Part shown: positions 22,605 to 39,694 of the stretch, piece after piece
Position numbering within the stretch: position 1 is the first letter of the stretch
Layout: each line of letters begins with the position of its first letter
Assembly (NCBI GenBank): GCA_015039365.1
Contig: WION01000438.1
Location: 1-44,136, forward strand
DNA length: 44,136 nucleotides
Direction: 5' to 3'
Source: Amanita rubescens
Taxonomy: Eukaryota > Basidiomycota > Agaricomycetes > Agaricales > Amanitaceae
Notes under the pieces: model-generated
The model's database searches: none
What the model was told of the DNA's origin: nothing
What the model saw: only the letters and a program-made list of their open reading frames with translations
Position numbers and translations under genes: made by a program

Positions 22605-23862
22605 ATGGCAGAGACTGCTGGTGCACATGTATCAGGTATTTTGAAATATAAAGGGTGGCCCCTTGTGCCCTGCAGAGACTGATGTGGGATATATCACAGT
22701 GCTTAAGGAACAATACAAATGCCCCCATTTTCGTGTTCTTATCATGGGAAGGGCCAATGCAGGCAAAACAACCATTCTTGAGAAGGTCTGTGGTGTAGAG
22801 AGTGGAACAGAACCTATCATTTATGACCAGAATGGTGAGTAAATCAAACCCTCAGTTACTTATGTGTATTCAGTATTTAAGGTAAACAATTGCTTCCTTC
22901 CACAATAAATTTGACACCAACAATGGAGGTGAGTTGACTTGTGAGAACAAATGACTGGAACAGATGCAATAGATTATAGCGAGGGATTCATGATATCGAG
23001 CACCAAATTACATACCCTGGAAGTAACTTTATCTTCCATGACTCTCAGGGTTTTGAATCTGGTGCAAGTGAGGAGTTGGAGAATGTTTGGAGATTCATTG
23101 ACAAGAGGTTAAGTGCAACTCGAGTTAAGGATCAATTACATGCAATCTGGTATTTTTTGTTGTTCATTCTTTACAACATTAGATGGTTATGCTTTTTATA
23201 GGTACTGCATACCCATGGACAGTCCTCGTCCTCTTCTGCCTGCAGAACTTGAATTTTTCACCAAAGGTATTGGGAAAGGTTAGTCCTTACTATTGTCAAT
23301 ATTTGGTTGAGTTGGCAAGCTGCCTCTCAAGCCTTCCTTGGAACTTTCCACTAATTGAGACCTTTGCAGTGCCTTTGGTAGTGATATTCACCAAATTTGA
23401 TGGTCAAATAATTCAAGAGTCTACTCAGTTGAATGAAGCTGAAGATAAGTGGGACAAGGCGAGAGAAAATGCTGATAAGACTTTTCAGGGAGTTTATCTT
23501 CCTAAAGTTCTGAGCACAAGATATCCCCCAAAAGCCTATGTGCGATTGGAAGGTGGAAATTAAAAAATATAATAACATATGGAAATCCTAAAGTTACCCA
23601 ACAGATATGGACATTCCAGGGAATGACTGTCCAGAATTGACTGAGAAGACTGCTGATGTAATTGATGATGCTAGTCTTCTGCAGTTGTTTGTCTCAACAC
23701 AGATGAACAATGTCAACATCTGCATCAAAGTTGCACTTGAGTAAGAATCACATTATGAACATTGATCTGAATTTCACAATCTTTAGATCTGTTTTAGCTG
23801 CAAAAGATTCCAGATGGAACATAGTTTTTATGTTGGTTCTGATCAACTTTCCACATTATTGG
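22605..23862 (+). CDS. P-loop G-domain (GTPase-like) protein, exons 1-8; gene continues into the microexon array
   Basis: Eight plus-strand exons join without frame break: 22605-22635, 22676-22834, 22882-22928, 22980-23149, 23202-23278, 23370-23552, 23605-23740 and 23787-23862. The protein has a Walker A/G1 motif (VLIMGRANAGKTTILEKV), a G3-like DSQGFESG and a G4-like FTKFDG, as in the G-domain proteins expanded in mushroom genomes. The likely role is GTP binding and hydrolysis; the physiological role is unknown. Exon 8 (NIVFMLVLINFPHYW) ends exactly in phase 0 at a GTGAGT donor. No stop codon follows in frame before the array, so the coding sequence must continue, presumably through the 3-nt exons described separately. 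The gene is AT-rich and poor in CpG compared with its neighbours. Confidence 0.85.
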
Positions 23863-26800
23863 GTGAGTCTGTGGCATATACTAACAAGAATGTCAAACAC
23901 TTACTAAGATAAACACCAGAGTATTTTAGCAGTATGTTCCTTCAACACAAATGAGTCATGCAAACAGCTGAAGCATCTAATAGGTTGTAAGTATAATGAC
24001 ATGCCCTTGCATGCTTATGTGCTCAATCATAGCACATGGAACAGGATGAACCAAATGTGGGAAATATGACTTGATATTGCAGTGTTTTAGAAGTTCTAAT
24101 CACATCACATCCGAACATTACCAACAGCTTGTGTGTGATGCCACAGCCTTATTTCCTTGGGGGGTCCAATCATACCTCATTATAACCAACAGGAAGTGAG
24201 TGATACTGCAATATTTTCTCCTTAACAGTTGATCATATTATGTACAGCATGTAAGTAATCCTGCAATGTGTTTCCTCCAGACAGCCTGATCATATTTCTG
24301 ACATGATTAATAGTCAGTAAGTAACACAAAGTTTTTTTTCCTGCCAGGCAGTCTAATCATGTCACATAACCAACAGCAAGTAAATGACTCAGCAGTTGTC
24401 ATTTTTTCACCAGGCAGTCTAATGGAATCTTGTCTTATGATTATTAGACAGTGAGTAAGACTGCCATTTTGCTTTGGCAGACAATCTGATCATGGCTCAT
24501 GCTGTGACCAATAGCTTGCAAGTTACCCACCTTTTTACCAGGAATTACATTCAAATCCCACCCCAATTCCAACAGAAGGTGAGTGGCCAGGAGTCCTTGG
24601 TTTTCTGCATCACTAAATCAATTTCTGTATTATAATATAACCAACAGCAAGTGAGGGCAATTTTGCTGTGTTCTATTGAGCAATGTAACCACATCCGCTG
24701 TATCCCTTGTCAACAGAAGGTCCATAAGTGATGCTGCATTACTTTGTTGTCAGGCAGTCTGATACATCTCACCCATGATTGACAGATTGTGAGTGATGAT
24801 GTGATATTTTTCTTGTGGGTGATCTCATCATGCCTCATCCCATGGGCAATAGCTTGTGAGTGACACTCAGGCTAGTGCCACTTCCTACATCATGTCTCAT
24901 GACAAATAGCAAGTGAGTGACTCTGGAGTGCTTTTCAGTCAGGCAATCTGATCACATAACCAACAAGGGGGTGAGTAGCCTCAGTGTTGCATGACACTTT
25001 GATCACATATCATTAATGAGTCACAGGGGGTAAGTGACATGTCTTTCAAGTAAAAGTAAATAGCTTGATCACATCACTCCCATGACCATCAACAGCAAGT
25101 GAGTAAAACTACTTCTTCCAGGTTGTCTGATCACACACAACCAACAGATTGTAAGTGGTGCTCATTTTTTCACATATCCTGAACACCCCTCATGCTATAA
25201 GCAACAGGGAGTGAGCAAAATGTTCCTGCCAGGGTGAATGATTACAATTTGTTCCATGACAATAGTGGGCAAGTGACACTGCCTTTAATCTCACTACTTA
25301 TCTTATCATACATATCCAACAGCAAGTGAGTGAAATTTCAGTTATGTTTTTTAAAGGCACTCAGATCACCTGTCATTCAGTCTGTTAGTGACACTAGAGT
25401 CCTTTTACCAGACATTCTAATTCACATATTGGCAATAAACAGGTTGTAAGTGCTAGCACAGTTTTTTTCAAAAGCACTCTGATAATATCATGTACAATTC
25501 CAAAGCTTGTAAGTGATCATGTATTGTTTTTTAGCAGGAGTATGATCCCATCCCATGCTGTGTTAACAGGAGGTCTGTGATTTTCTGCAAAGCAGTCTGA
25601 TCAAATTCAATCTTTATGACCACCAGGAAGTGAGTAGGAGTACATGCTTTTTTCCTCCAGCTAAGCTTTTTGCATCCAATAGTGGGTGAGCAGGGCTGGA
25701 GTACTTTATGAAAATAGTATAATCACATCAAATCCATGACAAACAGTGGGTGAGTGACATTGCACAAGTCTTCAAAAATGTAATCTCATCACATCACACC
25801 ATCAACAGCAAGTGAGTTGCATTGCAATGATTTCTTTTGGCAGCTTGATCACAGCCAATTCCATGGCCAACAGGATGTGAGTGGTGCTGCAGCTTTTTTC
25901 TCCCATACATTCTTTTCATAATGTGATCAACAGAGTGTAAGTGCCAATACATGAATACTTTGTGTACCAGGGAACTAATCTCATCACATTTCTGGTGATC
26001 AACAGGTTGTGAGTTACACTGCTGTAGGGTTTTTTTACCACATTGCATACCATGGGAACAGGTTGTGGGTAATTTTACAATCTTTGCAGCCAACTGGTCT
26101 GATCACTTTTTATTATACATACCACAACAGCCAGTGAGTAATTCCTGTCATCCAATCTGACTAGATCTCATAATACATGAGCAGGTTGTGAGTAACACTG
26201 TGGGAACTGTTTACAGGAAATCTGACCACATCATATCCTATAACCATCAGCAAGTGGGTACAGTCACTGTAATGCTGTTCTGAACAGTGGCTGGATCAAC
26301 TCATTCCATGACCATCAGCAGGTAAACAACACTACTACTCTTCACTGTGCCAGGCAGTCTTATTGTATTTAATCCCATGACCAACAGCAAGTGAGCAGCA
26401 CTTTTGGCCTGATACTCTAGTCTAATCACATGCTACCTCATGACCAACAGGAAGTGAGTAATTCTGCCATGATTTTTTTACTGCAAATAGACCAGTATGC
26501 CTAATCTCTTGACTACTAATAGTGGGTAAGTTACACTGCATTTTCTTCTCACATACACCTTGATGACAGGTATTTTATTCCATGACAAATAGGAAGTGGG
26601 TAACACTGCAGCATCTTCACTTTGACATCTTACACCATACTACCAACAGAGAGTGAGTGATATTGCATTGGTTTCCGTTAGCTGCCACTTCTCATCTGAG
26701 AACCCTCCTCAACATATGATCAACAGTGGGTGAGCAAGATCACAACATCTTTCATTCATGCAGTCTGATCATATGTATCTCTTTCCATGATCAATAGATT

Positions 26801-26934
26801 GTGGGTAACATAGCTGCACTCTTCTTTCAGGAATCTGATCACAACATTCTATGATCAATAGGAAGTTAGTAATAATTTGTTGCCAGCTACTGTCATCATA
26901 TTTCATGTGCTAATTGATAGCTTGTGAGTGACAC
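23863..26934 (+). repeat. Tandem intron/3-nt microexon array, left block (46 units)
   Basis: Each unit reads: donor (mostly GTGAGT), GACACTGCA-like start, T-rich tract, CAGGCAGT, branch-like CTGATCACA or CTAATCA, CATGACCAACAG acceptor, then exactly 3 nt and the next donor. Triplets (start): 23984 GTT, 24128 CTT, 24193 GAA, 24248 CAT, 24314 TCA, 24377 CAA, 24448 ACA, 24515 CTT, 24576 AAG, 24648 CAA, 24717 AAG, 24786 ATT, 24853 CTT, 24910 CAA, 24968 GGG, 25027 GGG, 25096 CAA, 25148 ATT, 25208 GGA, 25266 TGG, 25323 CAA, 25381 TCT, 25443 GTT, 25506 CTT, 25570 GAG, 25627 GAA, 25683 TGG, 25747 TGG, 25809 CAA, 25874 GAT, 25934 AGT, 26006 GTT, 26062 GTT, 26131 CCA, 26185 GTT, 26251 CAA, 26319 CAG, 26388 CAA, 26451 GAA, 26523 TGG, 26593 GAA, 26650 AGA, 26727 TGG, 26798 ATT, 26862 GAA, 26921 CTT. 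Introns are 49-74 nt, except 141 nt before 24128 and 121 nt before 23984. Donors at 24518 and 25269 are GCAAGT (GC-AG type). That the units are spliced one by one is inference; the repeated architecture is directly visible. Confidence 0.85.
26930..26934. repeat. Target-site duplication GACAC, left
   Basis: GACAC immediately precedes the TG of the left LTR and recurs at 36565-36569 just after the CA of the right LTR. This 5-bp duplication fits Ty3/Gypsy integration and marks the exact insertion point, six bases into an array intron. Confidence 0.9.
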
Positions 26935-27451
26935 TGTTATGATCACGTCGATCTCCACCTACGATGCGTCCACGCTAAGAGTGCTTGACAAAGTAGACTA
27001 AGTCCAACGGACAAGTCAAACAATAGGTGAACGAATAGGCTAAGTGATAAGACAACTAAAAGGAGTCTTATCCTTGAGAGCAATAATGAACGGAGTAGAA
27101 ACGACGTTCTTTAGGTGAGATGGGATGTGATATTGATAAAGACAGTTAAGTCGAACTTAAGGTTCGACGCTACGGTACATCGGTTTATATACATGTACAG
27201 AAACACAGCCGTATCGTAAGTAGAACAAGGGCGATAGCAAGTATAGGTAAAACAAGGGGCATAGGGGATGGTACGCGTATGAACAAGGAGTTGGGCATAG
27301 GGTAAACGGAATGGGGATCGATAAGGGAACGAGGTAGTCTGTTTGATGAACATAATGGGGATGTGACGAAGAGGTAGGCATATACGAAAAAGTAAGCATG
27401 TCCAACGTGTCATGTAATCATAATGTAGGAGTCCGTACCGTGTTTGTAACA
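26935..27451 (-). repeat. Left LTR (3' LTR of the element)
   Basis: 517 bp, TGTTATGATCAC ... GTTTGTAACA on the plus strand. It matches 36042-36564 except for 7 transitions and a 6-bp GAGTCC insertion in the other copy. On the minus strand it contains a TATATAAA box. Confidence 0.95.
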
Positions 27452-27453
27452 CT

Positions 27454-27464
27454 AGCTCTCCTCT
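27454..27464 (-). other. Probable polypurine tract of the retrotransposon
   Basis: On the minus strand the sequence just before the 3' LTR reads TAGAGGAGAGC, a purine run in the position where the plus-strand primer of LTR elements lies. It is short and interrupted, so the call is positional. Confidence 0.5.
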
Positions 27465-27500
27465 ACGTTGTTGACCGCAACAACAATATGCGGGTATCCT

Positions 27501-29006
27501 CTAGGTGTCGAGGTTGTGGCGGGCGTTTTCATCGTCGTAAGGATGATAGCCGGCAGAGTTGTCGACGAAGACGTCGAAGTCATTCGTCCTGGTTCCATCC
27601 TCCTGCGTTCCAGTCGGTGGGTGTGTCCGTATACGTTTGGACGAGTTCTTCGTTGTTGGCCTCAAGTGAGTTGAGGAGTTTGTGGAGAACCTTGAGGCGT
27701 CGGTTCTCTTCTTTAAGGAGCTTGATGATGCGCTCCTTGGATTCGTCGTCGGGACGAGGGACTGTTGGCGGTAGGGATGTGGCGGCAAAGAGCCGGACGT
27801 GGGACTGGTAATGGAGGAAATCCGAGATTTCCTGGTGGATGCGGGCGAGACGTTCTCGGCCGTCGAAAGCGCTGATGTTAAAGGCGGAGGGGGTGGAGGC
27901 CGATGCGGCGTTGGAGATGGTGGGGGTCTGTTGGGTCTGTTCTGCGTTCCCTTCCATAGTCGATAAAGGTTATGTTGGGGAATGAGCGAGCGTCCGAGGT
28001 TCTTAAACCTTTCGGCAGTCTGGGCGACGGGCGTGGAAGGTATAAGATTCTGATGGAGATCTAATTCCATCATGACGTGGGCAACTTCTTCATAGGCGTT
28101 GTGAGAGAGTTGCTGCGGTTTAGCTCCTTTGGTAAACAGATCTTCTGTCCATGCGGTGGTCCGTCTAGAAGATTCGGCGATCTCCTTGATTCGATCTGCT
28201 AGATCAGCTAAGGCGATTGCTCCGATTTCGGTTCTGTTTGTAAGCTCCAAGATATGCTGTGCATCTGGTGCGATCCTGTGAGGGTCAAAGCTGTGATGGA
28301 TGGCGACAAGATCGTTGGGGTCGTCGTTAAGGATGAATGGAGGGTGTGCTTCATTCCTGACGTCTAGGATGGCTTGTTCGTAGAAGCGTTCTACGTCAGC
28401 GGTGAGGATTCGACGTAAGAGGTCGATTCCAAATTGGTGGATGGTGCATCCATGAGAGAGTTTGGTGTACCATTCCATGCGATCTAAGTTGGTCCAGATT
28501 TCTATAAGATCTGCGCAGTGATAGTTGTATCGTTCTCGAGCGTTGACGATGATTGCCTTGGCGAGTCTTGCGTCTGAGAGAATGCGCCAGAGTCTGGTAA
28601 GTCGTTCCAGTTCCTGAGAATTGATTGACAGGCCGGAAAGTCTTTTAATATCGTTGAAACGTGTGAGAAGGGCGTGCGATGTACTTGTCCGCCCAAAGGG
28701 GTCCGAAGGAAAGGCTAACAAAGGGGAACCGTACAGAGTACGGAGACGGAGGGTTCGACGGTGACGGAGTAAACCCGCAATGCAAACGGACGCAAGTCCG
28801 ACGAAGATGCGTCGCGACGGAACGAAGTCGGACAAGTGCGAAGACGTACGACGGTGACGGAGTGAACCCGCGACGTAAAGGAACGTGAGTGCAACGAAGT
28901 TGCGACGGAGAGATATCAAACGGATGCGGAGGAGTGAAGGGCAGTATATTCTGATGTCCATACAGTACAATGAAGCCGTATATAAACTAATATGCACGAG
29001 GCGCAC
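27501..29006 (-). CDS. Retrotransposon-borne helical protein of unknown function
   Basis: A 501-codon minus-strand open frame downstream of pol. The first ~80 residues read through a local DNA repeat and are probably untranslated. From about residue 95 to 345 the protein is strongly helical, with acidic and hydrophobic alternation (for example SQELERLTRLWRILSDARLA and EEVAHVMMELDLHQNLIPST). The end is Pro/Ser/Thr-rich and overlaps another frame (27957-27580) that may be the true continuation. I recognise no family. It lacks the signal peptide and membrane anchor expected of an envelope protein. It may be an accessory protein of this lineage or a captured host fragment; splicing is possible. 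Confidence 0.4.
   Translation of the reverse strand: MRLVHISLYTASLYCMDIRIYCPSLLRIRLISLRRNFVALTFLYVAGSLRHRRTSSHLSDFVPSRRIFVGLASVCIAGLLRHRRTLRLRTLYGSPLLAFPSDPFGRTSTSHALLTRFNDIKRLSGLSINSQELERLTRLWRILSDARLAKAIIVNARERYNYHCADLIEIWTNLDRMEWYTKLSHGCTIHQFGIDLLRRILTADVERFYEQAILDVRNEAHPPFILNDDPNDLVAIHHSFDPHRIAPDAQHILELTNRTEIGAIALADLADRIKEIAESSRRTTAWTEDLFTKGAKPQQLSHNAYEEVAHVMMELDLHQNLIPSTPVAQTAERFKNLGRSLIPQHNLYRLWKGTQNRPNRPPPSPTPHRPPPPPPLTSALSTAENVSPASTRKSRISSITSPTSGSLPPHPYRQQSLVPTTNPRSASSSSLKKRTDASRFSTNSSTHLRPTTKNSSKRIRTHPPTGTQEDGTRTNDFDVFVDNSAGYHPYDDENARHNLDT
27580..27957 (-). CDS. Small coiled-coil open frame near the 3' LTR
   Basis: 125 codons from ATG at 27957 in a different frame from the overlapping 501-codon frame. 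The composition is natural: a Ser/Ala/Thr-rich start, then helical sequence with heptad-like leucines (ERIIKLLKEENRRLKVLHKL). It begins where the helical block of the longer frame ends (RLWKG), so the two may form one product through splicing or reinitiation. No family recognised. Confidence 0.35.
   Translation of the reverse strand: MEGNAEQTQQTPTISNAASASTPSAFNISAFDGRERLARIHQEISDFLHYQSHVRLFAATSLPPTVPRPDDESKERIIKLLKEENRRLKVLHKLLNSLEANNEELVQTYTDTPTDWNAGGWNQDE
28740..28915. repeat. Short imperfect tandem/direct repeats inside the retrotransposon
   Basis: CGACGGTGACGGAGT followed by AACCCGC occurs twice (about 28757 and 28850), with related CG-rich motifs (cgaagttgcgacgg, cgaagtcgga) between and after. 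The repeats lie between the two extra frames downstream of pol and would be poor coding sequence. They may act as an untranslated spacer. Confidence 0.6.
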
Positions 29007-29222
29007 TCACCGCAATCATCCTGAGCTCCTCCGATGGTCCGTGCGCGTATGCGGATTGCCTTGCTGTATGAATATGTCGAGTCGGCGGGTTGAGCCCTTG
29101 GCATCGTGTACGGGTGTCGAGGCGCGAAGGTTTAAGTGCGTCGGAATGCTCCGACGGATATCTCCGATGTCGGAATATCGGGCCGCGGATGCCTGCTGCA
29201 CAACGTAACCGGAATCGGTACG

Positions 29223-29786
29223 TTACATCGTCAATAGTCTTTCGCATAAGAGCTGAGCTGTTATAGTCTGCGAATGTCGTAAAGATCGTCTGAGGTTCAG
29301 AGGGAGTGATGTCTGCCATGATTCGACGACTGCTAGGGCTAGTTGGGTAGTTATCATCGCTTCTGTCGCGAAGATCGCCAGTTGATTCCTTGTCGAATTC
29401 GGCAAGAGAGTCGGGGTTATGATATACCTTTCGCATGTTATCAAGTATTTTCCTAGTTCTCCTTGTATCTTCATTATGTCTTCCGTTACCTTGATCTTCT
29501 GTGGTATCGTGAGGACTCGTAGCTCGGCTTGTTCTGGGTGAATCATCAGATCGATTCTCTTTGTCAGAATCTGAAGCGCTGTGATAAGGAACGAGGCGTG
29601 GCCTATTGGGTTCGGTGATCGTCGTCCTTCTGCTAGCATCCTGATTATTGGATGTATCGGGGGATTCGTCGGTGGTGGTGGTGTTGTCGTCGTTGTCTGG
29701 GTAAAGACTGAGTATATGGGCGGTTCCGGTGATGGTGCTCTCGTCGTTGTTGGCGAGATTGTCGGTGAGGTTCTTGTTGATTCCAT
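29223..29786 (-). CDS. Retrotransposon-borne open frame after pol, unknown function
   Basis: 187 codons from ATG at 29786, about 50 nt after the pol stop. A Pro/Thr-rich N-terminus (PTTTRAPSPEPPIYSVF) precedes an alpha-helical, hydrophobic domain (LITALQILTKRIDLMIHPEQ; ATEAMITTQLALAVVESW). A competing frame starts at 29793 and runs to 28987 but has a hydrophilic, arginine/aspartate-biased composition expected of a shadow. I recognise no family. It could be an accessory gene in the slot where some Gypsy elements carry env, but no signal peptide is visible. Confidence 0.45.
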   Translation of the reverse strand: MESTRTSPTISPTTTRAPSPEPPIYSVFTQTTTTTPPPPTNPPIHPIIRMLAEGRRSPNPIGHASFLITALQILTKRIDLMIHPEQAELRVLTIPQKIKVTEDIMKIQGELGKYLITCERYIITPTLLPNSTRNQLAIFATEAMITTQLALAVVESWQTSLPLNLRRSLRHSQTITAQLLCERLLTM

Positions 29787-29833
29787 GATTCATAGGTGGT
29801 TTCTGAGTCGTTGTAGGTGTAATCTTTGCTCAT

Positions 29834-32800
29834 TCAGAGTTTCCTACGTTTCTTATATTCATCAAGGATATCCTCGGCGTTTGACAAGTTCCTTTGGGGT
29901 TCCCAAGTGTTTTCGCTTGTATCATAGCCTTTCCATTTGACGAGAAACTGTAATTGACGTCCGATCTTTCGGTGTGCGAGAATAGCTTCTATTTCGTATT
30001 CTTCTGATCCTTCTATCAGGTCGGGTGGTGGACGTGTGTCATTAGGTCCATGGAATTCTGTTTCTTTATATGGTGATAGTAGGCATGCGTGGAAAACGCT
30101 GTGTATCTTCCATTGTTTTGGTAAGTCTAGTTGATAGGTGACAGGTCCTAAGACTTTCTTTATCCTGAAGGGTCCTTCTCGTTTAGGTGCGAGTTTACGT
30201 GATTGATAAGGAATGCATAGGTTCTTTGAATCTAGCCAAACCTTTTCTCCTTCTTTGAACGGTTTAGAATGTTTCATCGTTCGTTGTGCCATTTTAAGGC
30301 GTGCAAGGTCGTGTGCTGCCAGAGCTTCTTCTCTTGCTTTGATCAGGAGTCTGATGCGTTCATCTGCTACAGGGGTAGCTGACTGTTCTGTAACCTGAGG
30401 TAGTGCCACAGGGTTAGATCCATACATGAGGTAGAACGGTGATTGTTTCAGTTCTTCATGCGTTCTAGAATTATGAGCAAATTGTGCGATGGGAAGTATC
30501 TTATTCCATTTGTCTGGTTCATAAGCGCAGAATATGCGGAGATATACTTCTAGTACGGCGTTATAGCGTTCCGTTTGTCCATCTGTTTGAGGGTGAAAGG
30601 CGGTGCTCATCTTATGTTTGATCTGAAGTGCGCTGGTTATCCCTTTAAAGACTTTTGCTGCGAATTGCGGTCCTCTGTCAGATATCATGATGTCTGGTAA
30701 TCCGAAGTTCTTGAAAACTTCTTTGATATAGAGGTCGGCGGTTTCGGCTGATGTAATAGTTTTATTACAGGGACATAGAATTACTCCCTTTGAAAGTCCT
30801 TGGTCGACCACGACAAAGATAGAATCAAAACCGTCACTAGGCGGTAGGTCGGTGATAAAATCCATAGTAATCTGTTGAAATGGTCGGTGTGCGTGGGATT
30901 TAATCGGCATTAGGGGTGCGGCGGTGGGGTGTGTATTAGGTTTCATCTGTTGACAGGTAAGACATCCGTCGATAAAACTTTTGACAAGTGTTGTCATTCT
31001 AGGCCACCAATAGTGTTCCCTTAGTAGGCTAAGTGTTTTGAAGAATCCAGGGTGTCCTGCACTTGGTGCTTCATGGTATTCTCTAATAATAGATCGGCGA
31101 AGATCAGAGTCCATTGGGACGTATGCTTTGTTTTTAAATAGGATAATTCCGTCATCTTCGGTCCAATCGGTGATTGCTGTGCGGAGAGGCGCTGTTCCTT
31201 TTTCCTTTAAGCATCTTCTAATGGTTTCGGCAAACTCATCGGTTTGAGTTGCGTTCTTTACTTGATCTCGGAGATCCTCGGCGATGACTTGGATAAATAG
31301 TGAGTCAGGGAGCATCGTGACTGTTTCGTCATCTTCTTCTCCATTAGTGTGATCAGGTCGGCGGGATAAGGCGTCCGCTTGAGTTAATTTTGCTCCGGGT
31401 ACGTGAATTAATTGGTAATTGTATCTTGAGAGATTATTCCACCATCTTGCTTGTCTAGCTGTGAGACGTTGTGGTGCGCGGTAATAGGTTAAGTTTTTGT
31501 GATCGCAGTGTATAGTGAGTGTGTGTTCTGCTCCAAGCAGTAGATATTTCCATTCGTCAAGGGCGTAAATTATGGCAAAGAGTTCTCGGTCGTAGATTTG
31601 CCAATTTCGTTCGGTGGGCGTAAGTGTGTGTGAGAGATATCCACAAGGGTGTAAGTCTCCGTTTTCGTCTTTCTGCATTAAGGCGGCTCCGACAGCCCAT
31701 TTAGATGCATCCGTTTCGAGTATGAAGGGTTGATTGACATCTGGCATCTTTAGTACTGGTGCTGTTACGAAACTTTCCTTTAATGAGTCGAAGGCGACTC
31801 TACATTCTAGTGTCCATTCCCATATTTTGTTTTTCTTTGTTAAGTCGTGAAGGGGTCGTGCGAGATGCGCGAATCCGGATATGAAACGTCTGTAGTAATT
31901 TCCAAATCCAAGAAACGAGCGTACTTGTTTAACTGTTGTCGGAGGGGGCCAGTCTCTGATTCCAGCGAGTTTTATTGGATCCATTTTTATCGTGTCTTTC
32001 GTGATTATCATGCCTAAGAAGTCCACTTCCTCGGCGGCAAATTTGCATTTTTCAAGTTTCAGGTAAAGATCGTGTTTTTTTAATTTTGCGAGTACTAGCT
32101 TTGTTCTTTTCTCGAGTTCTTGTTTGTTGCGCGCGTGTATCAAGATGTCATCCATGTAAATGGCAATCCATCCTTCGTTCATGAAGTCCCTGAAGTAATC
32201 GTCCATCATTGCTTGAAATGTTGCTGGTGAATTGCGTAATCCAAAGAACATAACCGTTGGTTCGAATAGTCCTTTATTCGTGATGAATGCGGCTTTCCAT
32301 TCGTCTCCTTCTTTGATACGAACATTGTTGTATCCCCATCTGATGTCTAGTTTCGTAAAGTATTGTGATCCTTTAAGTTGTAGCATCAGATCGGATATGA
32401 GTGGTAGGGGGTAAGAGTTTGGTTTCGTGTGTTCGTTCAAGTATCGGTAGTCTTGGCAGGGTCTGAGTGTTTTGCTATCCTTCTTTTCGACATAAAAGAA
32501 TGGTGCTGCCTGCGGAGATTTGGATGGTCGTATATATCCTTTAGCTAGTTGTTCTTTGATCCATTCGTCAAGCGTATTCTGTTGTAATGGTGATATTGGG
32601 TAGATCTTCCCTTTCTTTGGTATAAAATCTTCGCGAAGTTCAATTGCGTGATCCCAAGATCTGCGGTCCGGGAATCGTTCTGACGCTTGTTTTTCAAATA
32701 TCTCTTTCCATTCGAGATACTCAGGAGGTAGCGTGATTTCCTTCTGATCGGTGTTGTACTTATGTTCCATTTGTTGAGCTGGTGAATAGCGATTAATCGT

Positions 32801-33241
32801 GATCTCGTCATAATCTTCTTCAGTCCATCTTCCTATATCTTCAAATGGTGGTTTCCAACGTAGACTCTTCTCTTCTGGTCCTTTGTGTGACAACAAATAC
32901 CGAATTACGACGTCTTCTTCCCATTTAGGCATTGCTTCTTCATCGAGTCGATGCAAGATGCTCCGTATTGATGCCTTCCATTCGTCTTCTTTAGAGTTAC
33001 GGAACTCCAGAGTTCTATTCCTCCAGCTTATGATTGGGTCATGCTTCTCGAGCCACGGAAGCCCCAGTATCAAGTTTTGATCGCCAAGCGAAGTGACCAA
33101 GAACCATTCGGTCATCTTCTTTCCATTGATATCGATGGTGATCAAACACTTGTCAGAAATTTCTCCATTCGTATTGTATGTGCCGTCAACGTTCTTGACT
33201 CGGATTGGTCTTGCGAGTTTCTTCTTTCTCCATTTATGCGT
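29834..33241 (-). pseudogene. pol: pol, main part: protease end, RT, RNase H, integrase, chromodomain
   Basis: A long minus-strand frame, intact from the solo LTR junction to the stop at 29834. It contains the protease C-terminal strand (LILGLPWL). The reverse transcriptase has YMDD at 32158-32147. RNase H begins FILETDASKWAVGAAL. The integrase has an HHCC zinc region (GHPGFFKTL ... CLTCQQM), a first Asp in TMDFITDLP and ISDRGPQF around the second. The end is a chromodomain (LQFLVKWKGYDTSENTWEP), which in chromoviruses guides integration to marked chromatin. The 5' part of the polyprotein is cut off by the solo LTR at 33242-33619, so I list it as disrupted even though this segment has no internal stop. 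Confidence 0.93.
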
Positions 33242-33619
33242 TGTAACGGATGGAATCCTGTTACAGTGTGCAGCATGCTCTGAAGCCTTCCGAAGATGTC
33301 CTCCGCCATCCACCTTCGATCCGCTTTCCGTCCGCTTCTGTCCGCTTTCGATCCGCTTCGATCCGCTCCGCTCCGACGCGCGGGAATTCGTCGGAGTACG
33401 TCGGATGCGCGGGAATATGTCGGATTATGTCGGACCACAAGCGCATGGTAAGCGCATGGTAGTTACTATAAGTACATGTCACATGTAGTCGTATACGATC
33501 AGCTACGAACGAGAATCGGAGTCCCCTTCCCCTCAGATCAGCCTTAGCTTAAGTCTGTGCACTATTGTGCATGGCACCTGCAGTGCTGGGTACAACCCAG
33601 AGCACATTGCAGTGTTTCA
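33242..33619. mobile_element. Solo LTR (family B), copy 1, inside pol
   Basis: 378 bp with TGTAACGG ... GTGTTTCA ends (TG...CA on both strands), flanked by the 4-bp duplication GCGT (33238-33241 and 33620-33623). It separates the protease active-site segment from the rest of pol. Removing the insertion and one TSD copy leaves the two frames in phase. A related copy lies at 35585-35952. No internal region is present, so it is a solo LTR or a very short terminal-repeat derivative. Confidence 0.85.
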
Positions 33620-33623
33620 GCGT

Positions 33624-33833
33624 GATTGATGAATTAATAAATAAACCTTCTGCACCGCTGTCAACCAGTGCAGTCATTGATTCAGTGTTGTCTTCGGTTT
33701 CAACTTCGAGGGGAATAGATAATCGATTGCTTGAAATAGAACGTACTATTACAGGTGATATCGAAAGATCGTCCTTTGGAGTTGAATCCGAAGTTATGGG
33801 ACAGGCATCCACTGACATGTGTCCCACTGTCAA
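33624..33833 (-). pseudogene. pol 5' segment with protease active site
   Basis: Minus-strand frame in the -1 register relative to gag, overlapping the gag stop. It carries the aspartic protease motif VDSGAEGLFINSS, as in retroviral-type proteases. It runs straight into the solo LTR at 33619. The gag end has a T-run just before its TGA (ATTTTTGA), which would allow a -1 slip onto this frame; that is inferred, not shown. Confidence 0.8.
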
Positions 33834-34837
33834 AAATCCGGTTTATCCGCGTTGATAAGGAGGTTGATACGTTGATCTGGAGAGAGTTTCTTTAACATAG
33901 CGCGTATCGTTCTGTCGCTAGTGTCTTCTTCTTCTTCTTCTTGTTCATGCTGGCTAGACTCTTCGACGTCTTCATAGTTACTGCCATCGTCATCCTTTTT
34001 GGTTGCTCGAATATGACGACCGTGTGCGAATTTCTTTCCTTTCTTTCCATTAAACTTCTTCTTTCCTTTGTAAGATCCTTTATCCTTCCTCATGGGGCAT
34101 TGTCCTGACATGTGGTCCGGTTTATGACATATGAAACAGAGTCCATCGCGGATATGTCGGGTTCGTTCATCCTTAGATAACGCGCCAAGAATTATTGCAT
34201 CGAGATCCATATCCCATTCGTTTCGAGGGGGTTTGTGTGAAGATGATCCTCCTCTGTTGGTTGCTAGAATGCCAATACGTGTTTCGGCGTTATATGCTCT
34301 AAGTGCTCCTTCGTACCATTCGTCCAAGGTTTTGGGGTCTCTCATTACGACTGCTCTGTACGTGTTGGCGTCGAGTCCTTGTCCGAACATGTGGGTAGCG
34401 GCACTGCCTGTGATTCCAGCTTTCTTTATCAGTTCTTTGAATAAACCAACGTATTTTGGGATTGAGATTCGTTTTCCTTTCTTGTCTTTTCGTTTCTGAA
34501 GCTGTACTAATTCTGTGTACGTGTTTCCGGGTGAATCTATTTCTTGCCAGTTATTGAGGAATCTGGTTTTGAATCCTGTCCAGTCGGTCCATAATATTTC
34601 CGTCTTTGCTGCATCGTTAAGATCGTCGTTCTGATTACGTCTCCAGTTTTCAGCTTTGTCGGTTATCATAGATAACGTCAGTCCGATTTTAAGTCTATCC
34701 GTGTTGATGCGACCTGGATTGAGATCTAGGAATAACTCCATTCGATCTATGAAATCCTGTGCTTGAGATCGCTTTCCTGTGAAGGTAGGGATTTCTCCTA
34801 AGAGACTAGGAATCGGTTGAATTGCTGGCGTTGTCAT
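33830..34837 (-). CDS. gag: gag (capsid/nucleocapsid)
   Basis: 335 codons from ATG at 34837, the first in-frame Met. The Ty3-type capsid region (FTGKRSQAQDFIDRMELFL; NNWQEIDSPGNTYTELVQL) is followed by a CCHC zinc knuckle (CFICHKPDHMSGQC, C-x2-C-x4-H-x4-C) and a basic tract (KGSYKGKKKFNGKKGKK). An acidic Glu-rich end follows. Gag packages the RNA and forms the particle. The same frame stays open for another ~247 codons upstream without a Met, so the native protein may be longer. Confidence 0.88.
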   Translation of the reverse strand: MTTPAIQPIPSLLGEIPTFTGKRSQAQDFIDRMELFLDLNPGRINTDRLKIGLTLSMITDKAENWRRNQNDDLNDAAKTEILWTDWTGFKTRFLNNWQEIDSPGNTYTELVQLQKRKDKKGKRISIPKYVGLFKELIKKAGITGSAATHMFGQGLDANTYRAVVMRDPKTLDEWYEGALRAYNAETRIGILATNRGGSSSHKPPRNEWDMDLDAIILGALSKDERTRHIRDGLCFICHKPDHMSGQCPMRKDKGSYKGKKKFNGKKGKKFAHGRHIRATKKDDDGSNYEDVEESSQHEQEEEEEDTSDRTIRAMLKKLSPDQRINLLINADKPDF

Positions 34838-35578
34838 TGTAACTGTTGGTGGTTCTGGAGGTGGTGTCGGCGGTTTCTGTGGTGGTACTGGTGGTCCTGG
34901 ACTAGGATCAGGTTTAGGATCGACTTCTATGTATTGAAGTCCTGGGGAACTCGGTTTCTCCTGTTCTGTTTCAAACGGGTTGAAATCGATTGGGCTAAGT
35001 AAGTCTGGAACAGTTTTGTCTTCCGACTCGGAAAGGTCACTGGAACTTTCGAATTGCTGATCGGGGTTTTCATCACTAGATTCGGTTCCTGATTCGCTTT
35101 CTTGTGTTACTCCAAAAGTTTTACCTTTTAGTGTAGTTTTGACTGCTGCTTTCGGTGTAGAGACTGCGCTTCTGTGCTGTAGGTTTTCGGGTAAGTTATC
35201 TGGGTTTCCTTCTATCCACTTTGGTCCTTTGAAGAAATCGTCTGGTACAAATTCGTATGTGAGTTCTGATTCAGGGCCTGGGTTATATCCTCCCCAACGT
35301 TTGGTATTTTCGTCGAATTCGACTTCAAATCCTAAGAGATAGTATTTGTCGTTGAACCGATGATAGAATGCGTTGTTGGGTGGTCTGTTGGCTCTCTGTG
35401 GTATCCAAAACTCTGATGTTGGTACGAGACTGTGGTCTTTCGCGTATTTCCAAAGGTGGTCCTTAGGGTCGTTGTAGATAGCGATATGATCTAGATAATA
35501 ATGTCCTCTTGTTCCTCTTGTAGCACGATTAGGCGGTATCCTCTGTTGATCCGAAATTGTTGCAAGCTGACCGGTAAC
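34838..35578 (-). pseudogene. N-terminal extension of the gag frame, cut by solo LTR copy 2
   Basis: The gag frame continues upstream for about 247 codons without a stop and without any Met. The content is protein-like: an aromatic/charged block (YAKDHSLVPTSEFWIPQR; YYLLGFEVEFDENTKRWGGY), then an acidic Ser/Glu tract and a polyproline linker (PPVPPQKPPTPPPEPP). It ends at an in-frame TAG at 35581-35579, three bases before the solo LTR's TSD copy. TAG followed by GTT could be a splice acceptor, which would supply a start codon from an upstream exon. Confidence 0.55.
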
Positions 35579-35584
35579 CTACGG

Positions 35585-35952
35585 TGTAACGGATGGAATC
35601 CTGTTACAGTGTGCAGCATGCTCCAAAGCTTTCTGAAGATGTCCGCCATTGATCATCCTTCAATCCGCTTTCTGTCCACTTCTGTCCGCTTTCGATCCGC
35701 TTCGATCCGATGCGCGGGAATTCGTCGGAGTACGTCGGATGCGCGGGAATATGTCGGATTATGTCGGACCACAAGCGCATGGTAAGCGCATGGTAGTTAC
35801 TATAAGTACATGTCACATGTAGTCGTATACATCAGCTACGAACGAGAATCGGAGTTCCCTTCCCCTCAGATCAGCCTTAGCTTAAGTCTGTGCACTATTG
35901 TGCATGGCACCTGCAGTGCTGGGTACAACCCAGAGCACATTGCAGTGTTTCA
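35585..35952. mobile_element. Solo LTR (family B), copy 2, upstream of gag
   Basis: 368 bp related to 33242-33619 (same ends and order, several C-to-T type changes and small deletions). It is flanked by the perfect 4-bp duplication ACGG (35581-35584 and 35953-35956). Its different TSD shows that the two copies are independent insertions rather than one element with two LTRs. Confidence 0.85.
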
Positions 35953-36027
35953 ACGGGCCGGTTCTCCGGAAGTTCGATATTTATCTTGTGTTTCACCAAC
36001 GAGGTAATACTCGGGTATCGTTTTGAT

Positions 36028-36040
36028 AAGTTCGACTTAA
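36028..36040 (-). other. Probable self-priming primer-binding site
   Basis: On the minus strand, one base after the 5' LTR, the sequence is TTAAGTCGAACTT. Its reverse complement AAGTTCGACTTAA occurs inside the same LTR (36265-36253, minus), about 33 nt after a TATATAAA box, where transcription should start. This is the arrangement of Tf1-like elements, whose RNA 5' end primes its own reverse transcription. I see no match to a usual tRNA-primed site such as TGGTATCAGAGC. Confidence 0.6.
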
Positions 36041-36041
36041 T

Positions 36042-36564
36042 TGTTATGATCACGTCGATCTCCACCTACGATGCGTCCACGCTAAGAGCGCTTGACAAAG
36101 TAGACTAAGTCCAACGGACAAGTCAAACAATAGGTGAACGAATAGGCTAAGTGATAAGACAACTAAAAGGAGTCTTATCCTTGAGAGCAATAATGAACGG
36201 AGTAGAAACGACGTTCTTTAGGTGAGATGGGATGTGATATTGATAAAGACAGTTAAGTCGAACTTAAGGTTCGACGCTATGGTACATTGGTTTATATACA
36301 TGTACAGAAACACAGCCGTATCATAAGTAGAACAAGGGCGATAGCAAGTATAGGTAAAACAAGGGGCATAGGGGATGGTACGCGTATGAACAAGGAGTTG
36401 GGCATAGGGTAAACGGAATGGGGATCGATAAGGGAATGAGGTAGTCCGTCTGATGAACATAATGGGGATGTGACGAAGAGGTAGGCATATACGAAAAAGT
36501 AAGCATGTCCGAGTCCAACGTGTCATGTAATCATAATGTAGGAGTCCGTACCGTGTTTGTAACA
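36042..36564 (-). repeat. Right LTR (5' LTR and promoter of the element)
   Basis: 523 bp with the same ends as the left LTR. In element orientation it supplies the promoter: TATATAAA at 36298-36291 (minus) and an inferred start near 36265. Confidence 0.95.
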
Positions 36565-39220
36565 GACACTGCAATGTTTCTGCATGGTCAGTATGAAACA
36601 CATTCAATTCTCATGACTATGATAGCTTGTGAGTGGCATGAACTCATCATTTCCCAGCAGTCTGAATATGTGACCAACAGCAAGTAAGTAATATTGCAAT
36701 GATCATCAAGCAGGAACTCTGATTGGCACAACACAATGAACAGTCAGTATGGAATTGCATTGCAGTGCTTTAATAGAATTTCAGTCTTTATATCCTATCT
36801 CACAACCAACAGCAAGTCAGTAGCAATACAGTCTTTCTCTGCCTTGAAGTCCAACTACTTCTCATGACATTGACCATAGGTTGTAAGTCACACTTCAGTT
36901 TCTCCTGCCAAGCAATTTTTTCAGGACTCATCTTATGATGAACAGCAGGTGACATGCACTCTTTCTCCACCAGGCAGCCTAATCATGTTTTGTGCAATAA
37001 TCACTAGATTGTAGGTGATGGTGCTATGTTGTGCAAGCAGAGAGTCTGATGAAATATGGTTAACAGGTTGTGAGTAACAATACACCATTTTTTTGGCCAA
37101 GCTGAAGCAGCCTGGTCTTGTATTGTCCCATTTTAGGAAGTGAGTAGCACAAACTTTTGTCTACCAGCAGTTCTCTGATGTCTATTGCTTAACCAACAGC
37201 TTGTGAGTGACACTGGAGCTTTGTTTTCTGACAACATCTTCACTCATTTACATGATCCACTGGCAGAATCCACAGGAAGTGAGTGGTAATGAAATGATGT
37301 GATCACATCTTATCCAATGGCCAACAGCAGGTGAGTGTCACTACAATCCTATCCTTCCAGGCAACCAGGTTAATCTAATTTATGCTGATTTTAAGCAAGT
37401 ATGTGGCACTTTTTTCAGATAGTCTAATTACATACATGCCATACTAATCATGACCAACAGGAAGTGAGTAGTACCATCATAGTGACTTTCTTCCATGGCC
37501 TTTGATTGAATCCCTTCCCATGACCAACAGGAAGTGAGTTAGACATGAGTGATATTCTGGCAGGCAGTCTGATCACACTTGTCATATGTCCAACAGATGG
37601 TAAGTGACTCTGTGACCTTTTTATGCAAGTCTAATCATTGTAATTTCATGGCTGATAGAATGTGAGTGATGCTCCAGTTTTTTTTGCCAAGCAATCTCAT
37701 CTCATCCCATCCAATGGCCAAAAGACTGTGAGTGATGCTGAACTTTTTTTCCAGCCAGCATAATTACTTGTTATGCATTGATAATAGCTGGTGAGGGCAA
37801 TGCAATGTCCTTTGTCACACTGTCTGATCATATCAAATGATCACACCCATGACTAACATAATTGCATAATGCATTCCATGGAGCACAGACAGTGAGTGGT
37901 ATTGCACTTTGTTTGTGCCTGGCAATTTAATGACATACATATCATCCCATTGCCAACAGCAAGTGGGTGACACTTCCCTGCTAATCTTTCAGCTCATACC
38001 ATCCCATGATGATAGGGAGTGAGTCTGAGGCATTCTTCTGTCAGGAAGTTTAATCAAATGCTGTTTTTTCATAAAGGTTGTGAGTAATGCTACAGTGATC
38101 TTCTGCTGTGTAACATGATAAAATCTTGTCTTATGACTAACAGCTACTGGTGATACTGCAATTTCTGTCTTTCTGCCACTCAACCTTCTCACAATAAATA
38201 GGCAGTAAGTGACAATACTATTGTCCTTATTCTACTGCCAGCCATATCTCATAAAATTGCCAACAGTATGTAAGTAATGCAGCCTTTTTATGTTAAACAA
38301 TTGAATCATATCTCATTATACATTACCAATTAACAGCAAGTGAGTGATAATGTGTTTTTTGTTCTGGAAAGTGTGATTCCACACCAAATAGTCTGTGCGT
38401 CTCCAGTGATTTTTGCAAAGCAATCAGTCACATGTCTCCCAATACAAAAAAGCAAGTGAGTACTTGCACAATATTCCTTTTCTAGTCAATCTGATCACAT
38501 CTCCCAATGAGCAACAGATTGTGAGCAACATTGTACTCATCTTAGAACTTTAATCACATCATATCTCACAACTGACAGCAAGTGGGTGGCACTGTACAAT
38601 ATAGCTTCCAGGCAGTTCAATCAAAGCTCATCCCATGCCCAATAGCAAGTTAGTGACACCACAGTATAGCTCTGCAATGCACTCTAACCACACTGTATCC
38701 CATGATGGGCAGCTTGTGAGTACAACATTAATCTTTTTTCATGCCAACCAGTCTCATTTAAGACCACCAGGATGTGAGTGACACAACATGTTTTTTTGAT
38801 TCCATTTAGCTTGATCATGTTGCACCTTATAACAAACAGCAAGTCAGTAGTTTCAGCCATATAATGTGATATATCCTAATTCCATTCACCAACAGATTGT
38901 TGGTTACACCACTGTTTTCATTGTCCTGCAACCTGGTCTGACTATATCTTATACCTTGATGGACAGTGTGTGAGTAATAACATAATGTAGCATTGGATCT
39001 GATCTGATCCTTATACAAATAGGCTGTGAGTAACACTTGCAACATTTCCTTCCATGGAGTCTGATCACAACCTATCCCATTAAATAGCAAGTAAGAAAAT
39101 ATATTGTCTTTTCTATCTTCTTCACTGTCTCACCCTCAATTATCCATAGATTGTATGGCATTATACATGGCCTTCACAGTACATTCTGATGTCACATTTG
39201 TTATCTTACTGGTTCTCTAG
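36565..39220 (+). repeat. Tandem intron/3-nt microexon array, right block (40 units)
   Basis: Continuation of the array after the TSD copy 36565-36569. Triplets (start): 36626 CTT, 36681 CAA, 36744 TCA, 36813 CAA, 36880 GTT, 36946 CAG, 37008 ATT, 37067 GTT, 37137 GAA, 37200 CTT, 37276 GAA, 37328 CAG, 37396 CAA, 37461 GAA, 37531 GAA, 37597 ATG, 37659 AAT, 37725 ACT, 37788 CTG, 37889 ACA, 37960 CAA, 38016 GGA, 38077 GTT, 38144 CTACTG (6 nt), 38202 GCA, 38267 TAT, 38337 CAA, 38392 TCT, 38453 CAA, 38518 ATT, 38579 CAA, 38646 CAA, 38713 CTT, 38771 GAT, 38840 CAA, 38896 ATT, 38967 TGT, 39023 GCT, 39088 CAA, 39150 ATT. Introns are 49-73 nt, apart from one of 98 nt (37791-37888) that seems to have absorbed a lost unit. 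Donors include GTGAGT, GTAAGT, GTGGGT, GTCAGT, GTTAGT and GTGCGT. Array order and spacing match the left block. Confidence 0.85.
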
Positions 39221-39324
39221 GTCAGTGGTAAACACAAAAGAGAACTGATATGCATGCTAATGAGCACTTAGCTTGTGTGCTCATTACCAAATTAAGTTGA
39301 TATTCCACTCATTCTAGTTGCTAG

Positions 39325-39375
39325 ACTGGACTTCTCTCTTTGTTTGGAGATGATCCATCAAGTTTTGAAGAAACT
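39325..39375 (+). CDS. Candidate downstream exon of the G-domain gene (17 codons)
   Basis: After acceptor GTTGCTAG, 51 nt read in phase 0 as TGLLSLFGDDPSSFEET and end at a GTAAGA donor. Start phase, end phase and length all agree with the frame carried through the 3-nt exons. A further triplet exon TCT (39448-39450) lies between CTTAG and GTAATA. The next acceptor (39502-39503) is followed by CAATGA, which in phase 0 is one codon then a stop (39507-39509). The gene could therefore end there. The link from 39150 to 39325 is uncertain because the acceptor at 39220 has no 3-nt exon after it. Confidence 0.4.
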
Positions 39376-39505
39376 GTAAGAGTTATATTTATCCCTGTAG
39401 TACATAGCTGACATAATGTAATCAGCCTGTAGCCTTCCAAATCTTAGTCTGTAATACACCAATGCTTTGATTTATGTTTTTTAATTAACATTACACATAC
39501 AAGCA

Positions 39506-39694
39506 ATGACTATCCTTGCCAAGCTGTCATTTTCCATAAGGAAGCCACTCCTTATGTCATTACAAGATGCTCTTGACCAGTTCAAGGAACAAGACTATAT
39601 GGGCAAACTCAAGATGCAGATTACTTCTGAATCTTTGCCTTCTGACAAAAAAGTGTTGGCTACCTTTCTGTATGATTTGGCTATCTGCATCTAA
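39506..39694 (+). CDS. Small open frame at the 3' end of the array gene
   Basis: 62 codons from ATG to TAA, beginning MTILAKLSFSIRKPLLMSLQ, hydrophilic later. It lies just after the acceptor at 39503 but is not in the frame predicted by phase 0. It could be the last exon under different splicing (for example acceptor at 39531), or lie in the 3' untranslated region. No family recognised. Confidence 0.25.
   Translation: MTILAKLSFSIRKPLLMSLQDALDQFKEQDYMGKLKMQITSESLPSDKKVLATFLYDLAICI

What the first reader, a model, noticed from the sequence alone, without database searches (positions are those of the whole stretch)
23863..39220. A gene tail made of ~86 exons of one codon each
Both halves of this region repeat the pattern acceptor (CAACAG or AATAG), three bases, donor (GTGAGT-like), then a 49-74 nt intron with a T-rich tract and a CTGAT/CTAAT branch-point motif. 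I count 46 units left and 40 right of the retrotransposon. All the interposed exons are exactly 3 nt except one of 6 nt. Known microexons are usually isolated; I am not aware of a described gene with dozens of consecutive 3-nt exons. If spliced, ~5.7 kb of DNA would yield about 87 residues. Steric limits on recognising both ends of a 3-nt exon make the splicing mechanism itself interesting (intron definition, or ordered removal).
Basis: partly seen in the sequence, partly recalled or inferred. Interest (0 to 1): 0.97.

Follow-up and report, generated by a model that had tools for sequence, protein, structure and literature searches.

The report
Gene chopped into one-codon exons
In a mushroom genome (likely Amanita rubescens), genes of a large GTPase family contain long runs of short intron-like units separated by single codons; these codons are predicted to be three-base exons that are likely spliced together one after another to make a highly variable stretch of protein.

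Summary
The window carries a GTPase gene (22605-39694) that reads as one 477-aa frame through 100 predicted exons; 86 are exactly 3 nt, phase 0, between ~60-nt introns. A Ty3-type retrotransposon sits in one intron. It is not a tail: conserved C-terminal exons follow. The unit is genome-wide: CAACAG-NNN-GTGAGT occurs 3050 times (reversed control 4), against 30 and 19 at spacings 2 and 4; 2 of the 3050 triplets are stops, and 0 of 670 parsed codons in 14 genes (column shuffles: 40.6). A JGI protein on a cDNA-sized contig (P0004) matches a sister array codon by codon: 40 of 48 identical, no gaps, above all 100 tail shuffles. P0017 ends in what looks like a retained array intron. The youngest array seen is a 65-bp tandem repeat, each unit an intron plus a codon. 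Best explanation: a spliced coding minisatellite that encodes a hypervariable linker, processed by intron definition (inferred). Splicing of the window copy is untested, and its retrotransposon may silence it. Ten literature searches found no such gene; isolated 1-3 nt exons and microexon genes are nearest.

The parts
22605..23862 (+). Eight conventional exons (22605-22635, 22676-22834, 22882-22928, 22980-23149, 23202-23278, 23370-23552, 23605-23740, 23787-23862) coding the G domain up to the conserved FPHYW; exon 8 ends in phase 0
   Evidence: boundaries chosen by eye for frame and splice sites; homologs
23863..26923 (+). Left half of the array: 48 predicted exons (46 of 3 nt, two of 12 nt) between introns of 49-74 nt, two of them GC-AG
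26924..36625 (+). Array intron that carries the retrotransposon; without it the intron would be 67 nt
   Evidence: flanks joined in the script only to show the empty site
26935..36564 (-). Ty3/Gypsy-type LTR retrotransposon with chromodomain; LTRs 26935-27451 and 36042-36564 are 97.5% identical; target-site duplication GACAC at 26930-26934 and 36565-36569
36626..39149 (+). Right half of the array: CTT at 36626-36628, then 38 further predicted exons (37 of 3 nt, one of 6 nt)
39150..39152 (+). ATT, last codon of the regular array
39220..39221 (+). Possible zero-length exon (ctctag|gtcagt), a ratchet-like site inside the 119-nt intron between ATT and CTT; an AG|GTnAGT site lies at the corresponding place in 8 of 10 sequences examined (window and C767 are alleles of one locus)
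39272..39274 (+). CTT, predicted 3-nt exon; would give the L of EILPxL in cDNA-like relatives P0001, P0002 and P0004
   Evidence: agCTTgt present in 4 of 10 sequences examined; placed by homology, not by the alignment, which chose another path here
39325..39694 (+). Conserved C-terminal exons 39325-39375, 39426-39450, 39504-39694 with stop TAA; helical domain in the model of a relative

Best explanation
The middle of this GTPase gene is an array of 87 intron-like units of about 60 nt separated almost always by a single codon, and these codons are predicted to be 3-nt exons that the spliceosome likely joins in order into one mRNA, which would give a hypervariable linker between the G domain and a helical C-terminal domain. 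Shown by sequence and calls: the unit, its exact 3-nt spacing, an open frame from ATG to stop through the model, avoidance of stop triplets, an array in each of the 14 genes of the pooled set (both ends of the gene mapped in 13), and the codon-by-codon match of a protein from a cDNA-sized contig to a sister array. Inferred: each 50-70 nt intron is recognised as a unit (intron definition), because both ends of a 3-nt exon could not be bound at once; neighbouring introns must therefore be removed one after the other, and each removal leaves the next donor three bases from the new junction. Inferred origin: the unit (62-nt intron + 3-nt exon = 65 bp) multiplies as a minisatellite by tandem duplication and then drifts, so that the linker gains codons one at a time without losing frame.
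For: Frame: phase is fixed by exon 8; 332 codons without a stop in frame 0, against 4 and 39 in the other two frames; in 14 genes 670 one-codon exons with 0 stops, where shuffled columns give 40.6 +- 4.6 and never below 24 in 2000. Genome-wide in strict units: 2 TGA, 0 TAA, 0 TAG among 3050; spacing 3: 3050, spacing 2: 30, spacing 4: 19. One frame of 477 aa through 100 exons. RNA-type evidence: P0004 (478 aa on a 1486-nt JGI contig) aligns through the L043 array with 40 of 48 codons identical and no gap; spliced-alignment score 1579.6 against 100 tail shuffles with mean 1468.7, sd 7.0, max 1488.9. P0001, P0002, P0004 and P0026 cover 97-99% of the query on contigs of 1486-1669 nt, while the genes span about 3 to 17 kb between G-domain and C-terminal exons. 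Retained introns: P0017 ends in VCDIAQFSECQSH, matching a translated array intron (46 against a maximum of 36 in 100 shuffles); P0013 runs from I into the terminal intron (51; 1 of 2000 shuffles as high). Architecture: 70 of 150 G-domain hits have a C-terminal exon 2.5-18 kb downstream on the same strand, controls 7 and 12. Collinearity: 87 of 87 units between the window and C767; 86 of 87 with C56, one unpaired on each side. Young array: 46.2 copies of a 65-bp unit, 98% match.
Against: No RNA from this gene or certainly from this species was seen. The JGI proteins come from contigs whose source and RNA nature I could only infer from length, missing introns and two likely retained introns. Only P0004 matches one array end to end; P0001, P0002 and P0026 match the sister arrays that I had poorly in the linker, P0013 and P0055 only at its start. 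In the broader test the P0013 retention was not significant (29 against null mean 25.1, max 37), and P0055 and P0015 showed none. The parser favours exon lengths divisible by 3 (checked with a flat prior). Array codons change as fast as introns (10.4% against 10.2%; conventional exons 2.5%), so selection is visible on openness, not on the residues. Some copies decay: L043 has a 4-nt exon and a broken C-terminal exon, L056 has exons of 1, 2 and 4 nt, L057 has three of 2 nt and two of 4 nt. The window copy itself may be silent because its array intron now holds 9.6 kb of retrotransposon.
Confidence: 0.92

Rival explanations
1. The array is a non-coding intronic satellite with splice-like motifs, removed as one large intron from exon 8 to the C-terminal exons.
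For: Deposited gene models leave the array out: 44 of the 49 models with FPH end within 45 aa of it (66 further deposited models without FPH were not counted), and P0042 and P0133 go from FPH.W almost directly to the C-terminal domain. Array codons evolve at the intron rate.
Against: 0 stops in 670 codons, in the phase set by exon 8; 2 stops in 3050 strict units; P0004 reads the codons of the sister array in order; the JGI relatives that reach the C-terminal domain have a linker at this place (tails).
Confidence: 0.04
2. The triplets are recursive-splicing (ratchet) sites used to remove a long intron piecewise; the 3 nt are mostly skipped or variably included, so isoforms differ by single residues.
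For: A zero-length site AG|GTnAGT lies in the terminal intron in 8 of 10 sequences; skipping any 3-nt exon keeps the frame.
Against: P0004 has residues for all 48 codons without a gap, so inclusion in order occurs. Partial skipping in other transcripts is not excluded.
Confidence: 0.15
3. The species behind the JGI proteins has the linker in ordinary exons, and only A. rubescens has (perhaps defective) introns between the codons.
For: The DNA of the JGI contigs was not available; P0004 could come from an intron-poor gene.
Against: P0017 ends in a peptide that matches a translated array intron and P0013 in one that matches the terminal intron, which points to such introns in their species too; deposited models of A. 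brunnescens, A. polypyramis and A. muscaria also tend to stop near FPH.W.
Confidence: 0.05
4. The arrays come from introner-like elements that insert beside earlier copies with a 3-bp target-site duplication, rather than from tandem duplication.
For: A 62-nt element plus a 3-bp duplication would also give a 65-bp unit. Adjacent identical codons are slightly in excess (55 of 656 against 42.4 +- 6.0), which both origins predict.
Against: I saw no terminal inverted repeat by eye in the unit (not formally tested); a 46-copy array at 98% match is what unequal exchange or slippage gives.
Confidence: 0.15

Closest known systems
Microexon genes (MEGs) of schistosomes
   Same: A central coding part mostly of tiny exons, mostly of length divisible by 3, missed by gene finders (passages of PMC4671649)
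   Different: There the microexons are under 36 bp, 26 of 33 symmetrical in the newly described MEGs, between two long flanking exons; here 86 are exactly one codon, the unit is a tandem repeat, and the host is a GTPase family in a mushroom
Bicycle genes of aphids
   Same: A fast-evolving family with many tiny internal exons of one phase (passages of PMC9168663)
   Different: About 17 exons per gene and phase 2; no one-codon arrays or tandem-repeat unit in the passages seen
Isolated 1-nt exons (Arabidopsis APC11; Fusarium CYP621A) and 3-nt exons
   Same: Shows that spliceosomes can include exons of 1-3 nt (abstracts of PMC4674806, and PMC12940212)
   Different: Single exons in otherwise ordinary genes
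Introner-like elements and stwintrons of fungi
   Same: Multiplying families of similar introns (abstracts of PMC4457414, and PMC9024468)
   Different: Those are at separate gene positions or nested in pairs; here dozens lie head to tail in one gene, one codon apart
Recursive splicing ratchet points
   Same: AG|GT zero-length sites (term recalled)
   Different: Here the exon left behind is a codon; zero-length sites are the exception
Immunity-related GTPases (Irga6, GM4951)

Membership tests
Microexon gene (MEG-like architecture) | Central coding part mostly of exons under 36 bp | tested here: met
   89 consecutive predicted exons of 3-12 nt
Microexon gene (MEG-like architecture) | Symmetrical (multiple of 3) microexons | tested here: met
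   796 of 807 exons of 1-30 nt are multiples of 3 under a flat prior
Microexon gene (MEG-like architecture) | Two long flanking exons | tested here: not met
   Eight 5' exons of 31-183 nt and three 3' exons of 25-191 nt
Microexon gene (MEG-like architecture) | Signal peptide, secreted product | not tested
   no call
Introner-like elements | Near-identical introns at many unrelated gene positions | not tested
   Most of the 100 places listed lie in clusters, a few stand alone; what genes they are in was not surveyed
Introner-like elements | Insertion signature (target-site duplication, terminal repeats) | not tested
   A 3-nt unit spacing is compatible; ends were only looked at by eye
Minisatellite (tandem repeat of 10-100 bp) | Head-to-tail copies of one unit | tested here: met
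   L057: period 65, 46.2 copies, 98% match; L041: period-65 rows with 66 and 72% match; in the window the repeat finder does not report the array
P-loop GTPase (TRAFAC, HSR1-like) | G1, G3 and G4 motifs | tested here: met
   GRANAGKT, HDSQG and TKFD read by eye in the predicted protein (motif names recalled)
Pfam MMR_HSR1 (PF01926) | Score at or above the curated cut-off | tested here: not met
   20.6 bits against 21.9 for the version of the window protein; several relatives bear PF01926
Immunity-related GTPase (IRG) | IRG fold over G and helical domains | tested here: inconclusive
   11% identity; interferon induction and membrane targeting were not testable
Ty3/Gypsy chromovirus (insertion in the array) | LTRs with TSD, RT-RNaseH-integrase order, chromodomain | tested here: met

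The most novel reading that the evidence does not exclude
A spliced coding minisatellite: a 65-bp tandem unit that is a whole intron plus one codon has spread through a mushroom GTPase family with 150 or more copies in the assembly, giving on the order of 12,000 one-codon exons. The spliceosome must decode the linker codon by codon, all 20 amino acids are in use, and since any skipped exon costs just one residue in frame, the arrays would be a generator of protein variety, by change of copy number and codon and perhaps by splicing, in proteins that resemble immunity GTPases.
Probability: 0.65. Interest if true: 0.98.

Novelty: categorically new. Interest (0 to 1): 0.96.

Why it matters
If confirmed it would be the most finely split coding sequence that I know of, with about 90 introns in a row at one-codon spacing. 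It gives a natural test of how short an exon can be when introns are recognised as units, and of the order in which neighbouring introns leave. It would show intron gain by tandem duplication at several ages in one genome. It also suggests that annotation pipelines lose the last third of these proteins: 44 of the 49 deposited models with FPH in my hit lists end within 45 aa of it.

Tried and rejected
Rejected: chance (control; reverse strand). A non-coding satellite (stops, frame and P0004). A retrogene origin of the JGI proteins is made unlikely for P0017 and P0013 by their likely retained introns; for P0001, P0002, P0004 and P0026 it was not tested. My first 3' end (a 7-nt exon GTCAGTG and frame IVSVARLD...) was phase-consistent but wrong by homology and was replaced; the searches used that first version. 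CTRAY as branch motif was not enriched in pooled introns; CTNAT was. I looked for tandem growth in intron similarity by distance along the array; it is flat (0.65 at lags 1-8 in five arrays). Introns at the same position in paralogs are more alike (0.733, n 54) than others (0.542, n 432), so the older arrays seem inherited by gene duplication; the shuffled baseline for intron identity is high (0.56), so within-array similarity is modest (0.69 same gene, 0.63 different genes). A neutral simulation of window against C767 gave no clear selection on residues: 1 synonymous change against 3.4 expected, P 0.15; mean BLOSUM P 0.067; 0 stops P 0.047; 0 NNC P 0.038. Exon lengths changed in 1 of 87 pairs while 56 introns changed length, but exons are so short that only a few changes would be expected; not counted as evidence. 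P0042 (full coverage) is not a copy with the linker in one exon as far as its model shows: the model goes from FPHYWV almost directly to the C-terminal domain; its DNA was not examined. In the pooled codon count I left out C767 (allele), C192 (same as C767), L043 (decaying) and the partial arrays in L001-L038; L056, L057 and L058 were fetched later and are not in it. The intron statistics leave out parsed introns longer than 80 nt outside the window. Arrays outside Amanita are only hinted at by deposited models of Mycena, Jaapia and Athelia that stop at the same place; no DNA of those was available.

Controls against the design of my parser: the parse favours lengths divisible by 3; one search repeats it with a flat prior.
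Full report
WHAT WAS CHECKED. I read the region and parsed it with a chain model of donors, acceptors and introns. Allowing GT and GC donors, the window has 49 introns to the left and 39 to the right of a retrotransposon (the 49th left intron ends inside the element and was replaced). Left exons are 46 of 3 nt and 2 of 12 nt; right exons are 37 of 3 nt and 1 of 6 nt; one more 3-nt exon (CTT, 36626-36628) appears when the retrotransposon's intron is closed, and two more (ATT at 39150 and CTT at 39272) when the 3' end is modelled by homology. Because that model could favour multiples of 3, I repeated it with a flat prior on 18 stretches: 767 of 842 exons are 3 nt; of the 807 with 1-30 nt, 796 are multiples of 3.

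A GENOME-WIDE UNIT. CAACAGNNNGTGAGT occurs 1554 + 1496 times in the 75.7-Mb assembly, the reversed pattern 2 + 2 times. With 2 or 4 bases between, the counts are 30 and 19; ten of the 30 and three of the 19 lie in one decayed array (C749). The strict form is only 198 of 767 parsed 3-nt exons, so roughly 11,800 one-codon exons are expected in the assembly. This counts assembly copies, and some loci are present as two or more near-identical copies (for example C192 and C767, 99.99% over 6481 bases). The species is inferred: contig lengths such as 1,667,397 (C1) and 976,794 (C650) equal those of contigs that hold Amanita rubescens proteins.

THE GENE. Eight conventional exons code a P-loop GTPase domain ending in FPHYW in phase 0. 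The array follows, then C-terminal exons at 39325-39375, 39426-39450 and 39504-39694. The whole reads as one 477-aa frame over 100 exons; the conventional exons were chosen by eye and homology, so only the array part of that frame is an independent test. The last-exon query finds 126 matches in the genome (150 of 212 candidates scored), the G-domain exon 150 (150 of 266 candidates scored). Of the 150, 70 have a C-terminal exon 2.5-18 kb downstream on the same strand (median 4.9 kb); controls on the opposite strand and upstream give 7 and 12. I then took twelve genes with both ends mapped (the arrays of two, on C1 and C3, were already known): all twelve have an array between, of 22 to 78 introns.

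CODING SIGNAL. Phase 0 is set by exon 8 independently of the array. In that phase 332 codons hold no stop, against 4 and 39 stops in the other phases. Over 14 genes: 739 codons, 0 stops, against 7 and 101; the 670 one-codon exons hold 0 stops where independent columns give 40.6 +- 4.6. Among the 3050 strict units two are TGA and none is TAA or TAG. All 20 amino acids occur, with E, Q, G, K and R most frequent. The third base is almost never C (3 of 670; 35 of 3050). As this base is also position -1 of the donor, I infer a splice constraint; it costs no amino acid, since every NNC codon has an NNT synonym.

RNA-TYPE EVIDENCE. A search with the predicted protein (version) returned, among the 120 listed of 949 hits, four JGI proteins that cover 97-99% of the query on contigs of 1486-1669 nt (P0001, P0002, P0004, P0026). 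Coding length fills 90-97% of the contig for P0001, P0002 and P0004 (lengths), whereas the genes here need 3 kb or more between the two ends. A spliced alignment of P0004 to the gene at C1:29749 (L043) runs codon by codon through the array: 38 of 45 aligned one-codon exons identical, 40 of 48 in the gapless comparison (one of the 48 exons is 4 nt and was shortened for it); the score exceeds all 100 shuffles of the 46-residue tail (1579.6 against a maximum of 1488.9). P0017 ends in a peptide that fits a translated array intron (46 against a maximum of 36 in 100 shuffles), and P0013 runs on from the last I into the terminal intron (51, reached by 1 of 2000 shuffles; not significant in the broader scan). 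So the source species of these transcripts most likely have introns of this kind. P0055 and P0015 gave no such signal. P0001, P0002 and P0026 match no fetched array well in the linker; P0013 and P0055 match only its first part. That these contigs are cDNA is inferred; no call showed their source.

HOW IT EVOLVES. Window and C767 loci match 87 units to 87; intron substitutions 520 of 5092 (10.2%), codon substitutions 29 of 279 (10.4%; one unit whose exon length differs left out), conventional exons 28 of 1131 (2.5%). With the C56 paralog 86 units align and one on each side is unpaired; 14.1% and 15.4%. Of 24 changed codons 1 is synonymous. So residues drift at the intron rate while openness is kept. 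P0001 and P0002 are 96% and 95% identical before and after the linker, but their linkers are 77 and 60 aa with 34 identical positions. The C13 array (L057) is a near-perfect 65-bp tandem repeat of 46.2 copies at 98% with codons such as CTA CTA CTA CTA CAA CGA CGA; the C1 array has diverged, and in the window the repeat finder no longer sees the array. Decay is visible too: L056 has exons of 1, 2 and 4 nt.

HOW IT WOULD WORK. Introns (696 of up to 80 nt, plus all of the window's) have a median of 61 nt (5-95%: 50-68), GT 682 and GC 14, T runs and a CTNAT motif 15-45 nt from the acceptor in excess. This suits intron definition (recalled as the mode in fungi). A 3-nt exon could hardly be bound at both ends at once, so neighbours must be spliced one after the other; that is inference. 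One site at the end of the array is a possible zero-length exon (39220/39221), found in 8 of 10 sequences. The predicted structure of P0004 has low confidence (pLDDT under 50) at 317-328 and 334-360, within or next to the array-coded residues 327-374, and high confidence in much of both sides. I read the array product as a flexible linker. The fold is closest to immunity-related GTPases over the whole length, with about 11% identity; a role in nonself recognition is speculation.

THE WINDOW COPY. A Ty3-type chromovirus of 9.6 kb with 97.5% identical LTRs and GACAC duplications sits in one array intron. If introns are recognised as short units, this allele is likely to be spliced badly; the C767 allele lacks the insertion. 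Tests should use that allele.

LITERATURE. Ten searches listed no paper on genes with runs of one-codon exons; six phrases for such exons gave 0 papers. Known: single 1-nt exons (abstracts PMC4674806, PMC12940212), 3 nt as the smallest alternatively spliced exon before that (abstract PMC4674806), microexon genes (passages of PMC4671649), bicycle genes (passages of PMC9168663), introner-like elements and stwintrons (abstracts PMC4457414, PMC9024468), and a Trichoderma microexon whose abstract says that functional microexons had not been described in filamentous fungi (PMC11121469, search listing). The library lacks most subscription journals, so absence there is not proof.

Noticed in passing
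window 40400-42570, minus strand: The neighbouring gene encodes DUF382 and PSP domains, the pair that I recall from the splicing factor SF3B2; a splicing-factor gene beside the array gene is probably coincidence.
   Followed up: partly
window 42548-43543, plus strand: An open stretch with an F-box-like domain.
   Followed up: partly
window 26935-36564: Recent Ty3/Gypsy chromovirus insertion with chromodomain; reading frames on the minus strand; also an internal direct repeat of about 380 bp at 92.7% identity, one copy near the 3' LTR.
   Followed up: partly
L056 (C749) and L057 (C13): Arrays with 1-, 2- and 4-nt exons (L057 only 2 and 4), some of which could compensate each other's frame shifts.
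   Followed up: partly
array codons, 14 pooled genes and strict units genome-wide: The third codon base, which is donor position -1, is almost never C: 3 of 670 and 35 of 3050.
   Followed up: partly
deposited protein models of Amanita, Mycena, Jaapia and Athelia: 44 of 49 deposited models with FPH end within 45 aa of it (66 models without FPH not counted), which hints that tiny exons follow there in other Agaricomycetes too.
   Followed up: partly
ATT-to-CTT intron, window 39153-39271 and homologs: Zero-length AG|GTnAGT site in 8 of 10 sequences, a possible ratchet point.
   Followed up: partly
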